From Pseudomonadota bacterium (lineage in GTDB: Bacteria; Chloroflexota; UBA6077; JAJPHF01), in NCBI GenBank assembly GCA_021325365.1, contig JAJPHF010000107.1:1-42914 (forward strand): a stretch of DNA of 42,914 bases, in the 5' to 3' direction. Position 1 is the stretch's first letter. Each line of letters begins with the position of its first letter. Positions 21,730 through 25,765 of the stretch are shown here, one piece after another. A model generated the notes under the pieces. It made no database searches. It was not told where the DNA came from and saw only the letters and a list, made by a program, of their open reading frames with translations. A program made the translations under genes and the position numbers.

Positions 21730-22815
21730 ATGGACCATGCGCCGACCGGCGACGCCTTCGCCCCGGGACTGTTGGCGCGGCTGCCGGCGCCGCGGCGGGT
21801 GGCCCTGGTGCGCGTCTCGCGGCTTGGCGACTTCATCTGCGCGACGCCGGCTTTTCGGGCGCTGCGCGCCGCACTGCCCGAGGCCGAGATCACGTTGATT
21901 GGCCTCCCGTTCGCTCGTGAGCTAGTGGCCCGGTCGCGGCAGCTGGACCGTTTCGCGCCCTTCCCCGGCTTCCCGGGTATGGCCGAGCAGTTCTTCGACG
22001 CCCGGCGCGCGGCGGCCTTCCTACGACGGATGCAGCGAGAGCGGTTCGACCTGGCGGTGCAGATGCACGGGTCGGGCGTTTACTCCAACCCGTTCACGCT
22101 GCTGCTCGGCGCGCGGGCCACGGCCGGCTTCGTTCGGCCAGGCGATCCGTCTGGACGGCTGGACGCGGCGCTGCCGCTGCCGGACGAGCTGCCGGAGATC
22201 GAGCGGCTGCTGGCGCTCGTGACGTTCCTGGGCGCCCCGGCGCACGGCGCTACGCCTGAGTATCCGCTCTGGCCAGCGGACCACGCCGCGGCGGAGCGAT
22301 TGCTGGCCCGGCTGACCCGGCCGCTCATCGGGCTGCACCCGGCGGCGCGACACCCGACCAAACGGTGGCCGCCGGAACGCTTCGCGGCCGTCGGCACGGC
22401 ACTCGTGGAGCGATTCGGCGGCACTGTCGTGGTGCTGGGCGGCCGGGAGACGCGACCGTTGGCGGAAGCAGTGGCGGCGCAAGTCCGTGCTACGTGCCGG
22501 AACCTGGCCGGGCGGACGGGTCTCGGGTCGCTGGGCGCGGTCGTGGCACGGCTGGCCGTGCTGGTGACGAACGATACCGGGCCGGCGCACATCGCCTATG
22601 CGCTGGGCACGCCCACGGCGACGGTCTTCGGCGGGACCGATCCGGCGCAGTGGGGGCCGCCAGACGGGCCGCACCGCGTGGCGCTGCATCCCGTAGCCTG
22701 CCGGCCGTGCGAGGAGGTGCCCTGCCCGGTGGGTTACAGCTGCCTCGCGGGGGTGACCGTCGGCCAGGTGGTGGAGACGGCGGAGGCCGTGTGGCGCCCC
22801 GCGGAGCCGGGCTAG
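21730..22815 (+). CDS. Glycosyltransferase family 9 protein (heptosyltransferase-like)
   Basis: 361-residue GT9 enzyme, paralogue of the one at 3779. Family start RRVALVRVSRLGDFICATPA, acceptor-side loop, then PLIGLHPAARHPTKRWPPER, a glycine-rich VVVLGGRE, the donor motif LVTNDTGPAHIAYALGTPTA and the terminal Cys-rich block ACRPCEEVPCPVGYSCLAGV. The Cys block and chain length fit complete GT9 proteins and show, by comparison, where the other paralogue's native end would lie. The acceptor could be a cell-surface glycan; the family in bacteria without lipopolysaccharide is poorly characterised. A perfect hairpin begins at the stop codon. Confidence 0.92.
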   Translation: MDHAPTGDAFAPGLLARLPAPRRVALVRVSRLGDFICATPAFRALRAALPEAEITLIGLPFARELVARSRQLDRFAPFPGFPGMAEQFFDARRAAAFLRRMQRERFDLAVQMHGSGVYSNPFTLLLGARATAGFVRPGDPSGRLDAALPLPDELPEIERLLALVTFLGAPAHGATPEYPLWPADHAAAERLLARLTRPLIGLHPAARHPTKRWPPERFAAVGTALVERFGGTVVVLGGRETRPLAEAVAAQVRATCRNLAGRTGLGSLGAVVARLAVLVTNDTGPAHIAYALGTPTATVFGGTDPAQWGPPDGPHRVALHPVACRPCEEVPCPVGYSCLAGVTVGQVVETAEAVWRPAEPG

Positions 22816-22887: not shown

Positions 22888-23121
22888 CTATTTGGCGAGC
22901 AGATCGTCGATCCGCGTGCGGTCGAAGCCCATCACCACCTGGCCGTCGATGACGGTGACGGGGGTGGCGCGGGCGCCGAGCGCGAGCAGCTCCTGGAGCG
23001 CCGCCGGGTCGTCGCGGATGTTCTTCTCGGTGAACTGGATACCCTTTTGAGAAAGATACTCTTTCTCGCTATGGCACGGCGCTCACCCGGTCTGCGTGAA
23101 CAGCGTTACCTGTTTGGCCAT
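22888..23121 (-). CDS. Probable selenoprotein: glutaredoxin with UxxC active site
   Basis: 77-residue glutaredoxin/YruB-like protein if UGA at 23083-23085 (codon 13) is selenocysteine. It reads MAKQVTLFTQTG, then U-A-P-C (Cys16), then HSEKEYLSQKGIQFTEKNIR, the cis-Pro motif ARATPVTVIDGQVVMGFDRT and ends DDLLAK-TAG. Family members have CxxC at this site, so UGA replaces exactly the nucleophilic cysteine. ATG 23121 has an excellent GAGGAGGAG site. The frame before the UGA is only 12 codons, so ordinary gene calling misses the gene. A perfect SECIS-like hairpin follows the UGA. Likely role: thiol-disulfide or peroxide-linked reduction with Sec as attacking residue. Divergent from an exported-protein gene at 23347. 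Confidence 0.9.
23049..23085 (-). promoter_or_regulatory. In-frame UGA with bacterial SECIS-like hairpin
   Basis: On the minus strand UGA (23085-23083) is followed by 15 bases, then GAGAAAGA (23067-23060), loop GTA (23059-23057) and TCTTTCTC (23056-23049). The 8-bp stem is perfect, the loop starts with G and begins 23 bases after the UGA, all as expected for a bacterial SECIS element read by SelB. The A/T-rich stem is unusual in this GC-rich setting. Confidence 0.8.
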
Positions 23122-23346
23122 CACTCCTCCTCGCCGCGGCTCCCTCGGCGCGTCCGGCGGCCGGGCCGGCCGTGTGGCGGGAGTCGCGCCCTGATCAACG
23201 TCTTTCAAGCCGCGTGCCAGCGTGGGCCCGTGGCTCGCTGCGCCGGCATTATAAACCGCGTGGTATGGCGACGGTGGGGAGTAGAATGCGCGGGGACATT
23301 GCCAGGGCGCCGGCGCGGGCGCGCCGGCGCGTCAAGGGAGGCATCC

Positions 23347-23949
23347 ATGCCACAGGTTACCGCTATCGGTCGTCGCTTCGTGGGCGTTGCCCTGATCGCG
23401 CTCGGCATGACAGGAGGGCTCGGGCTCAGCGCGGCCCGCGCCCAGGACACCGATCAGCTCGCGGGCGGCCCCGTCGTCGCGCTGGCGAACGGCCAGGCCA
23501 TCGTCGCTACGCCGACCGGGCCGGTAACGGTGCAGCTCGAACCCGACACCCGCTACGAGATGGACAGCCCCGGCACGCTCGCCGACGTGCAGCCGGGCGA
23601 GGTCGTGGGGGTGACGGGCCACCCGGAGAATGGCGAGTTGACCGCTGTCGAGATCCACGTCTTCCCGACGCTGCTGAACATCCGCCAGGCGCAGACTCAG
23701 ATGACCGGCGCGAACGCCGGGAACCTGATGACGAACGCGCGCGTCGAGAGCTTCGCCAACGGGGTGTTAACGCTGAACCTGGCGGGCCAGCTGATTCCGA
23801 TCAACACGTCGCCGGCGACCTCGGTCACGCACCCCGTGCCGGTCGGCCCGGACAGCGTGCAGCAGGATAGCCGCATCGCGGCCAGCGGCCCCGTGGGGCC
23901 GGATGGGGTCATTCAAGCGCGGGTGGTGTGGATTCCGGCGCTCCACTGA
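23347..23949 (+). CDS. Exported hypothetical protein (OB/DUF5666-like beta repeats)
   Basis: 200-residue secreted protein with a clear signal peptide (VGVALIALGMTGGLGLSAAR, cleaved after ARA). The mature part has short beta-strand repeats such as TGPVTVQLEPDTRYEMDSPG and DVQPGEVVGVTGHPENGELT, then AVEIHVFPTLLNI, similar to the DUF5666 type of exported proteins; a second related repeat may be VESFANGVLTLNLAGQLIPI. No catalytic residues visible. AAGGGAGG precedes ATG 23347. Its promoter probably lies in the AT-richer stretch 23245-23290, shared with the divergent UGA-containing glutaredoxin gene. Confidence 0.7.
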   Translation: MPQVTAIGRRFVGVALIALGMTGGLGLSAARAQDTDQLAGGPVVALANGQAIVATPTGPVTVQLEPDTRYEMDSPGTLADVQPGEVVGVTGHPENGELTAVEIHVFPTLLNIRQAQTQMTGANAGNLMTNARVESFANGVLTLNLAGQLIPINTSPATSVTHPVPVGPDSVQQDSRIAASGPVGPDGVIQARVVWIPALH

Positions 23950-24283: not shown

Positions 24284-25765
24284 ATGGACGGGTTCGCGGA
24301 GTTTGGGCTGCGGCGCGAGCTGACGCGCGCGCTGGCCGAGATGGGCTACGAGGAGCCGTCGCCGGTGCAGCGCCAGGCGATCCCGCTGCTGCTCGAAGGC
24401 CGCGACCTGATCGCGCAGGCGATGACTGGCACCGGCAAGACCGCCGCCTTCGGTATCCCGATCGTCCAGCGCGCGGACGCGCGGCAGCACGACCCGGAGG
24501 CGCTGGTCCTGACGCCCACGCGCGAGCTGGCGATCCAGGTAGCGGGCGAGATCACGCGGCTGGCTCGTTTCCGCGACCTGTGCATCCTGCCGATCTACGG
24601 CGGCCAGCCGTATGACCGGCAGCTGCGAGCGCTGCGGCAAGGCGTGCAGGTGGTCGTCGCCACGCCAGGCCGCCTGCTGGACCACATCCAGCGCGGCACC
24701 GTGCGGCTGGAGCACGTCAACTTCCTGGTGCTCGACGAGGCCGACGAGATGCTGAACATGGGCTTTCTGGAGGACGTGGAGGCCATTCTCCAGGCGGTGC
24801 CCGCCGAGCGGCAGACGGCGCTGTTCTCCGCGACGATGCCCGAGCCGATCGTGCGGCTCGCCCAGCGGTACCTACACGACCCCGCCCGCGTGACGCTGTC
24901 GCAGCCGCGCGCGCTCACCGTGCCGGCGATCGAGCAGTTCTACTATCAAGTGCCGCGCGGCCATAAGGTCGAGGCGCTGGCGCGACTGCTGGACCTGAAG
25001 GCGCCGACCTTGGCGCTGGTGTTCTGCGCCACCAAGCGCATGGTGGACGAGCTGGCCGAGGAGCTGCGCGCGCGCGGGTACCGGACGGAGGCGCTGCACG
25101 GGGACTTGAGCCAGGCGCAGCGCGAGAAGGTGCTGCGGGCGGCGCGCGCGGGGAAAGTCGAGGTGCTGGTAGCCACCGACGTGGCGGCGCGCGGGCTGGA
25201 CGTGGAGCAGATCAGCCACGTCGTGAACTTCGACCTGCCGTACGACGCCGAGGTGTACGTCCACCGCATCGGGCGCACCGGCCGGGCCGGCCGGGCGGGT
25301 GAGGCGATCACGCTGCTGGCGCCGTGGGAGCGCAACCAGGTGCGCGCGATCGAGACGGCGACGGGCGCGCGCATCCAGCGCGCCGAGGTGCCGACGGTGG
25401 CCGAGATGGAGGCGCGCGAGCGGGAGATGGTGGAGGAGCGGCTGCTGAAGACGCTCCAGGGGGGCACCTGGGGCGGCTACCGGGAGCTGGTGGCGGAACT
25501 GGCCGAGGAGCACGACCCGCTCGACCTGGCAGCCGCCGCCATCGCGCTGGCCGTTGGCCCGCGGCGCGAGCTGGTGGAGATTCCGCGGGTCACGGAGCTG
25601 CCGCCACGCGCTGCGCGCCGGCTGAGCGAGCCCGGCCGGGGCGCCCGCGGCGCCGCCCGCGAGCGCCCCGGCCGATTCCGCCCCGAGGCGCGTCCCGGCC
25701 CACGGCCGCACCGCGCCCGCCCGCAAGCCCCGGGCGGGGCGCGGGCACGGCGCTCGCGGCCGTAG
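24284..25765 (+). CDS. DEAD-box ATP-dependent RNA helicase
   Basis: 493-residue DEAD-box helicase of the DeaD/CshA type, remodelling RNA in ribosome assembly, decay or cold adaptation. All motifs are present: Q motif GYEEPSPVQRQAIP, Walker A MTGTGKT, PTREL, TPGRLLD, VLDEADEML, SAT (FSATMPEP), then helicase C motifs ATDVAARGLDV and HRIGRTGRAGRAG. After residue 370 an ancillary region (TATGARIQRAEVPTVAEMEA, then ERLLKTLQGGTWGGYRELVA) resembles the dimerisation part of CshA/DeaD. The C-terminal 50 residues are Arg/Pro/Gly-rich and probably bind RNA. A GGGAGGGG site precedes ATG 24284. Confidence 0.95.
   Translation: MDGFAEFGLRRELTRALAEMGYEEPSPVQRQAIPLLLEGRDLIAQAMTGTGKTAAFGIPIVQRADARQHDPEALVLTPTRELAIQVAGEITRLARFRDLCILPIYGGQPYDRQLRALRQGVQVVVATPGRLLDHIQRGTVRLEHVNFLVLDEADEMLNMGFLEDVEAILQAVPAERQTALFSATMPEPIVRLAQRYLHDPARVTLSQPRALTVPAIEQFYYQVPRGHKVEALARLLDLKAPTLALVFCATKRMVDELAEELRARGYRTEALHGDLSQAQREKVLRAARAGKVEVLVATDVAARGLDVEQISHVVNFDLPYDAEVYVHRIGRTGRAGRAGEAITLLAPWERNQVRAIETATGARIQRAEVPTVAEMEAREREMVEERLLKTLQGGTWGGYRELVAELAEEHDPLDLAAAAIALAVGPRRELVEIPRVTELPPRAARRLSEPGRGARGAARERPGRFRPEARPGPRPHRARPQAPGGARARRSRP

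What the first reader, a model, noticed from the sequence alone, without database searches (positions are those of the whole stretch)
22888..23121. Overlooked glutaredoxin selenoprotein: UGA in place of the first CxxC cysteine
Seen: one frame from ATG 23121 (GAGGAGGAG upstream) to TAG 22888 with one in-frame UGA at codon 13. Around it the protein is a clean glutaredoxin (QTG-U-APC-HSEKEYLSQKGI and ARATPVTVIDGQVVMGFD). The UGA falls on the nucleophilic cysteine position. Behind it, at 23 bases, is a hairpin with 8 perfect base pairs and a GUA loop starting with G. Known: Sec-containing glutaredoxin-like proteins and UxxC redox centres occur in bacteria. Inferred: this gene is decoded with selenocysteine. 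The pre-UGA part is 12 codons, so ordinary annotation misses the gene altogether.
Basis: partly seen in the sequence, partly recalled or inferred. Interest (0 to 1): 0.93.

Follow-up and report, generated by a model that had tools for sequence, protein, structure and literature searches.

The report
Selenocysteine-containing glutaredoxin gene, often mis-annotated
A small redox-enzyme gene carries a stop codon exactly where its key cysteine should be, and relatives, codon choice and a conserved RNA hairpin indicate that the stop is read as selenocysteine; this is a real gene of an already known kind.

Summary
In detail: 23121..22888 (-) is a 77-codon glutaredoxin frame with one in-frame UGA, at codon 13, the first position of the CxxC motif. 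The selenocysteine reading is strongly supported. Of 46 distinct relatives read at codon 13, 44 have TGA, one GGA, one TGT. In 95 genomes of one phylum, 115 of 118 matches carry exactly one in-frame TGA. The hairpin fits the published bacterial SECIS model, covaries in 35 genes that share its register, and its codons are nearly frozen. SelB and SelA are each over cut-off in 83 of 95 genomes. The window's own genome is not held, so its Sec machinery is untested. Foldseek's first PDB match is Clostridium oremlandii Grx1, natively a selenoprotein. Sec-glutaredoxin is therefore a known kind and this is a new member, probably from a Chloroflexota host. A side finding: in that phylum 23 of 68 MerB places lie within 1 kb of such a gene, and 12 of those 23 MerBs carry an in-frame TGA. 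The window copy has no such neighbour.

The parts
22888..23121 (-). Sec-glutaredoxin coding sequence, 77 codons, UxxC motif U13-A-P-C16, stop TAG
23083..23085 (-). UGA read as selenocysteine (codon 13)
   Evidence: 44 of 46 distinct relatives read here have TGA; Cys in L017 and P0004
23049..23067 (-). bacterial SECIS-type hairpin, 8 bp, loop GUA starting 23 nt after the UGA
23029..23087 (-). larger predicted structure around the hairpin (two further stems, the outer one taking in the UGA); predicted in the window only, conservation not tested
23124..23132 (-). Shine-Dalgarno-like GAGGAGGAG, 2 nt before the ATG
   Evidence: seen directly

Best explanation
A standalone gene for a small thioredoxin-fold glutaredoxin whose attacking residue is selenocysteine (U13-A-P-C16). 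A hairpin just behind the UGA recruits SelB carrying Sec-tRNA-Sec, so the UGA is read as Sec instead of stop. The selenol of U13 attacks a disulfide or similar oxidised substrate and C16 resolves the intermediate. Shown here: the frame, the family and fold match, conservation of the UGA, a hairpin that covaries and whose codons hardly change, and Sec machinery in genomes of relatives. Inferred: Sec insertion in this organism, the catalytic steps and the substrate.
For: Conserved UGA: 44 of 46 distinct relatives read at codon 13; 115 of 118 matches in 77 of 95 genomes have exactly one TGA, the other 3 being partial matches that start at query residue 13, 15 or 16; 20 of 21 matches in 18 of 43 genomes of a second phylum. 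Cys forms: L017, P0004. Hairpin in 35 genes: 95.0% of cells paired and 12 cells changed on both sides, 0 of 500 shuffles reaching either; RNAalifold predicts it there, 7 pairs. Stem codons in 26 genes: mean synonymous entropy 0.28 bits against 1.21 behind them, GC3 0.35 against 0.79. Window: GC3 8 of 15 in codons 14-28, 46 of 48 in 29-77; CTT is 0.8% of Leu and TCT 1.3% of Ser codons in six window genes. Window against six relatives, codons 29-77: dN 0.24-0.42, dS 0.74-1.36. Model pLDDT 95.1; first Foldseek match 7c10, Dithiol cGrx1, TM 0.92, rmsd 0.8, 49% identity; the cGrx1 paper says cGrx1 is natively a selenoprotein.
Against: The window's genome is not held, so its selA/selB/selC/selD are untested; the window has no tRNA and no Rfam hit. 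On all 45 aligned genes RNAalifold finds no structure, and two slid controls have 14 and 13 both-side cells against 12; the signal is clear only after 10 genes that look one register off were set apart. Even in the 35, 38 of 500 shuffles and one slid version equal the number of pairs changed on both sides, 3. Folding energy is ordinary under codon resampling. Stem codons are not frozen in every pair compared (L006/L010: dS 0.97 over seven codons). L046 has GGA at the aligned position. Six of the 77 genomes with the gene show neither SelA nor SelB at the thresholds used, and since 71 of 77 with it and 16 of 18 without it have at least one, co-occurrence has no power.
Confidence: 0.95

Rival explanations
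1. The UGA is a sequencing error, or the gene is a decaying pseudogene.
For: Only one contig was read here, and one base separates TGA from TGC or TGT.
Against: The same codon is TGA in 44 of 46 distinct relatives read there; the frame is otherwise intact, with dN well below dS behind the hairpin, and the hairpin is conserved.
Confidence: 0.02
2. UGA is reassigned genome-wide, for example to tryptophan, in this organism.
For: Two database entries, P0002 and P0003, show W at this position.
Against: Six window ORFs with family matches (2365 codons with stops) run through their domains without internal TGA (an ORF has none by definition, but the matches are near full length), and the frame with the DUF5666 match ends in TGA. 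Trp cannot act as the first residue of a CxxC site, and the hairpin and its unusual codons would be unexplained.
Confidence: 0.01
3. UGA is a real stop: a 12-residue peptide is made, and the rest is translated from an internal start or is conserved only as RNA.
For: 21 of 25 database homologues are 42-65 residues long; of seven of those read, six begin behind the UGA position and P0024 has another N-terminus.
Against: In the window the only in-frame starts after the UGA are codons 62-64; dN is well below dS behind the hairpin; residues before the UGA are conserved together with those after it.
Confidence: 0.02

Closest known systems
Clostridium oremlandii Grx1 (cGrx1), native selenoglutaredoxin; PDB 7c10 'Dithiol cGrx1'
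   Same: First Foldseek match (TM 0.92, 49% identity) and first sequence match in the PDB; catalytic residue and C16 align without gaps; the paper gives a U(or C)PXC site and native Sec. The link between 7c10 and the paper is by the name cGrx1; the paper's text search for the code gave nothing.
   Different: Another phylum; cGrx1 is proposed to reduce MsrA, and an MsrA partner was not searched for here
Glutaredoxin (Grx), UxxC, PF00462, in catalogues of bacterial selenoproteins
   Same: Same Pfam family and motif
   Different: The passages read name no Methylomirabilota or Chloroflexota example of this family
Uxx-star family glutaredoxin-like (seleno)protein, NF041212
   Same: Second-best NCBIfam match
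   Different: 58 bits, under its cut-off of 66; seven TGA relatives tested also do not reach it
GlrX_YruB, TIGR02196
   Same: Best NCBIfam match, 75.3 bits
   Different: Under its cut-off of 88.55

Membership tests
Glutaredoxin (PF00462) | Pfam gathering score | tested here: met
   49.2 bits against 22.9, with C for U
Glutaredoxin (PF00462) | thioredoxin-type fold with the motif at the start of the first helix | tested here: met
   predicted strands and helices E5-9 H14-25 E31-34 H39-47 E55-58 E61-64 H68-76, helix directly behind residue 13; PDB matches
Bacterial selenoprotein | in-frame UGA aligned with Cys in homologues that are not selenoproteins | tested here: met
   L017 TGT; P0004 Cys
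Bacterial selenoprotein | bSECIS model: 3-9 nt loop, 4-16 bp stem, G in the first two loop bases, 16-37 nt spacing, MFE <= -7.5 | tested here: met
   3 nt, 8 bp, G first, 23 nt; energy -8.8 with a few flanking bases, but -7.3 for the bare 19-mer, just short of the limit
Bacterial selenoprotein | Sec machinery in the same genome | not testable with these tools
   no genome held for the window; found in most relatives' genomes
Bacterial selenoprotein | Sec found in the protein | not testable with these tools
   needs mass spectrometry or 75Se
Uxx-star (NF041212) | curated score cut-off | tested here: not met
   58 against 66
GlrX_YruB (TIGR02196) | curated score cut-off | tested here: not met
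   75.3 against 88.55
NrdH (TIGR02194) | curated score cut-off | tested here: not met
   50.8 against 85.75

The most novel reading that the evidence does not exclude
This Sec-glutaredoxin lineage is a dedicated selenol partner of MerB-type organomercurial lyases, about half of the adjacent ones carrying an in-frame UGA of their own at a conserved cysteine, so that lyase and redoxin form a two-selenoprotein organometal detoxification module in Methylomirabilota-type bacteria. The window's standalone copy would be a relative kept for general redox or unlinked metal work.
Probability: 0.4. Interest if true: 0.58.

Novelty: new member of a known kind. Interest (0 to 1): 0.36.

Why it matters
It confirms from raw sequence a gene type that databases often hold truncated or with a wrong residue, and shows a glutaredoxin lineage with TGA at its active site in 77 of 95 genomes of one phylum. 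The link to MerB gives a testable substrate hypothesis for a selenoprotein family whose role is otherwise general.

Tried and rejected
Searching the window's own genome: none held. Rfam and tRNA scans of the window: nothing. RNAalifold on all 45 genes: no structure; a register shifted by one, tried on all 45, paired 70.8% of cells; that register was not tested on the 10 set-apart genes alone. Folding energy as a stand-alone argument: dropped, ordinary under codon resampling. Co-occurrence of the gene with SelA/SelB: no power. The tRNA-Sec cut-off as proof: 15 of 17 genomes pass, but so do 5 of 14 control genomes, so I give weight to the TCA anticodon that ARAGORN reads in 4 of 4 loci fetched. 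Host by names: hits that bear a taxon are Chloroflexota or Dehalococcoidia in 1 of 1, 12 of 13 and 3 of 6 cases, and the closest hits bear none, so the host is probable only. Not run: the second structure job, VIA-align, PHROGs and PADLOC scans, scans of viral contigs, covariance models.

Full report
What is in the sequence. On the minus strand a frame runs from ATG 23121 to TAG 22888, 77 codons, with one TGA at codon 13. With C for that residue it is a full glutaredoxin: PF00462 at 49.2 bits against a cut-off of 22.9. GAGGAGGAG lies 2 nt before the ATG. The only in-frame start codons behind the UGA are codons 62-64, so the domain cannot be made without reading the UGA.

Relatives. A scan of species genomes gave 19 loci, most of them titled Methylomirabilota, NC10 or Rokuibacteriota. 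In 17 the aligned codon 13 is TGA, in L017 (Fictibacillus aquaticus) TGT, and L019 matches only the C-terminal part (there the script printed a wrong codon for L018 because its match starts at residue 3; searches give TGA). Together with loci from two whole-genome searches (30 of 118 and 10 of 21 matches fetched), 58 entries less 12 duplicates left 46 distinct genes, the window included: 45 have TGA at codon 13, and L046 has GGA behind an unrelated N-terminal reading. L017 and L019 were not in that set; with L017, 44 of 46 relatives read at codon 13 have TGA. In the phylum of G002 (the genome of L002, titled Candidatus Rokuibacteriota), 77 of 95 genomes gave 118 matches: 115 with exactly one in-frame TGA and 3 without, which start at query residue 13, 15 or 16 (recounted as 118 in 77 genomes). 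In the phylum of G011 (the genome of L013), 18 of 43 genomes gave 21 matches, 20 with one TGA. A protein search found 25 proteins. Of these, 21 are 42-65 residues long; of the seven of them that I read, six begin behind the UGA position and P0024 has another N-terminus. P0002 (identical to the window apart from residue 13) and P0003 have W there and P0004 Cys.

The hairpin. GAGAAAGA-GUA-UCUUUCUC begins 15 nt behind the UGA, its loop after 23 nt. It fits the bacterial SECIS model given in PMC13188914 (passages read): loop 3-9 nt, stem 4-16 bp, G in the first two loop bases, spacing 16-37 nt, energy at most -7.5. The bare 19-mer is -7.3, with a few flanking bases -8.8. I aligned the 45 TGA genes. 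On all 45, 84.7% of cells pair, RNAalifold predicts nothing, and two slid controls have 14 and 13 both-side cells against 12. Ten genes (L013, L014, L016, L056, L057, L060, L062-L065) read GGUGAAGG-AGUU-CCUUCACC or similar and look one register off; I set them apart by eye, and did not test them alone. In the remaining 35, 95.0% of cells pair, 12 cells have changes on both sides, and 0 of 500 shuffles reach either; slid versions reach at most 77.5% and 6 cells. On the number of pairs changed on both sides (3 of 8), 38 of 500 shuffles and one slid version do as well. RNAalifold predicts the hairpin in these 35, 7 pairs, two of them with both-side changes. Codon use is the cleaner evidence. In 26 genes with the window's type of stem, the seven stem codons have mean synonymous entropy 0.28 bits and GC3 0.35, and 37 codons behind them 1.21 bits and 0.79, counting positions where at least 70% share the residue; not every pair of genes is frozen (L006/L010, dS 0.97 over the seven codons). 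In the window (72% GC) GC3 is 8 of 15 in codons 14-28 and 46 of 48 in codons 29-77; CTT and TCT are 0.8% and 1.3% of their families in six window genes. Redrawing synonymous codons from window usage gives the eight pairs in 4 of 100,000 draws, though the folding energy alone is ordinary (369 of 2000).

Machinery. No genome is held for the window. In the genomes of 17 relatives tRNA-Sec is over cut-off in 15, but 5 of 14 control genomes also pass; ARAGORN reads tRNA-Sec with anticodon TCA in 4 of 4 loci fetched. SelB is over cut-off in 12 of the 17. In the 95 genomes SelB is over cut-off in 83 and SelA in 83. Eight show neither (SelB at E up to 1e-60, SelA up to 1e-30), six of them with the gene (G013, G030, G069, G084, G085, G095); completeness of these assemblies is not given. 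The trait is so common that gene and machinery cannot be shown to go together (71 of 77 against 16 of 18).

What it works like and what it is. The predicted structure (19-row alignment, pLDDT 95.1) has 7c10, Dithiol cGrx1, as first Foldseek match (TM 0.92, rmsd 0.8, 49% identity); a sequence search of the PDB puts the same chain first. PMC7642778 on Clostridium oremlandii Grx1 (title, abstract start and two passages) says that cGrx1 is a native selenoprotein with a U(or C)PXC site and that its Sec was replaced by Cys for the work; I tie 7c10 to it by the name cGrx1. So the window gene most likely works like cGrx1, selenolate attack by U13 and resolution by C16; these steps are carried over, not shown. 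It is a member of PF00462. It stays under the cut-offs of NF041212, TIGR02196 and TIGR02194, as do seven TGA relatives, so I do not file it as Uxx-star, YruB or NrdH. Glutaredoxin stands in the selenoprotein tables of PMC13188914, PMC1794560 and PMC2398784, with the motif UxxC in the first and third (passages). PMC13188914 also cites a Methylomirabilota genome with 63 predicted selenoprotein genes, and PMC1794560 lists 3 selenoproteins in Chloroflexi.

Host. Hits that bear a taxon are Chloroflexota or Dehalococcoidia in 1 of 1 cases for the gene, 12 of 13 among the 120 listed for the helicase 24284-25765 and 3 of 6 among the 120 listed for the heptosyltransferase 21730-22815. The closest hits bear none. 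Chloroflexota is probable, not shown.

Surroundings. Beside the window gene lie a heptosyltransferase-type protein (21730-22815, +, convergent) and a protein with a DUF5666 match (in the frame 23047-23949, +, divergent). In relatives the picture differs. MerB (PF03243) has 68 places in 50 of the 95 genomes, 52 of them with in-frame TGA. Of the 68, 23 lie within 1 kb of one of the 118 glutaredoxin places, all on the same strand, 21 with MerB upstream, 12 with TGA; a rough uniform expectation at 4 Mb per genome is 0.06, and the cases are related, not independent. I read eight such pairs. In five TGA-MerBs aligned with five others, the UGA falls on a cysteine present in all five others; two stretches behind the UGA were folded and both form a hairpin. 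I recall this cysteine as catalytic in MerB; no call shows that. ArsR-type regulators lie in the same loci in 12 of 46 cases. No MerB relative was found within about 5 kb of the window gene. Three MerBs tested score under the NCBIfam cut-offs for MerB and SaoL; SaoL is in print as a MerB-like selenoprotein (passages). Whether the MerB-glutaredoxin pair is in print I could not settle: one search listed 6 papers, I saw passages of two, and the two papers by Haft and co-workers are not held.

Verdict. The finding is right and its reading almost certainly right. It adds a member to a known kind, so the interest is moderate; the MerB link is the part worth following.

Noticed in passing
phylum of G002; e.g. 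L004:4301-5202, L007:9330-10228, L066-L073: MerB often lies directly upstream of the Sec-glutaredoxin: 23 of 68 MerB places within 1 kb of one, all same strand, 21 upstream.
   Followed up: partly
L066-L073 (eight read); 52 of 68 MerB places: MerB genes with an in-frame TGA; in five aligned ones it falls on a cysteine present in five MerBs without TGA. Probably selenoprotein MerBs in tandem with a selenoglutaredoxin.
   Followed up: partly
L013, L014, L056, L060, L062, L063, L064, L065: In the phylum of G011 a relative of the CoA-binding-domain protein of L013 (PF13380) follows the Sec-glutaredoxin on the same strand in 8 of 10 distinct loci.
   Followed up: no
L046:494-682: A relative with GGA instead of TGA at codon 13 and an unrelated N-terminal reading; assembly fault, shifted frame or real loss not settled.
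   Followed up: no
L019:1218-1295: A relative in which what looks like the start of the protein runs straight into the C-terminal half, as if the middle with the UGA were missing.
   Followed up: no
P0002, P0003: Database proteins with tryptophan at the UGA position, perhaps from gene calling with a code that reads UGA as W.
   Followed up: no
window 23047-23949: Plus-strand frame with a DUF5666 match, divergent from the glutaredoxin; as listed it overlaps the glutaredoxin start, and by eye the real start may be the ATG at 23347.
   Followed up: no
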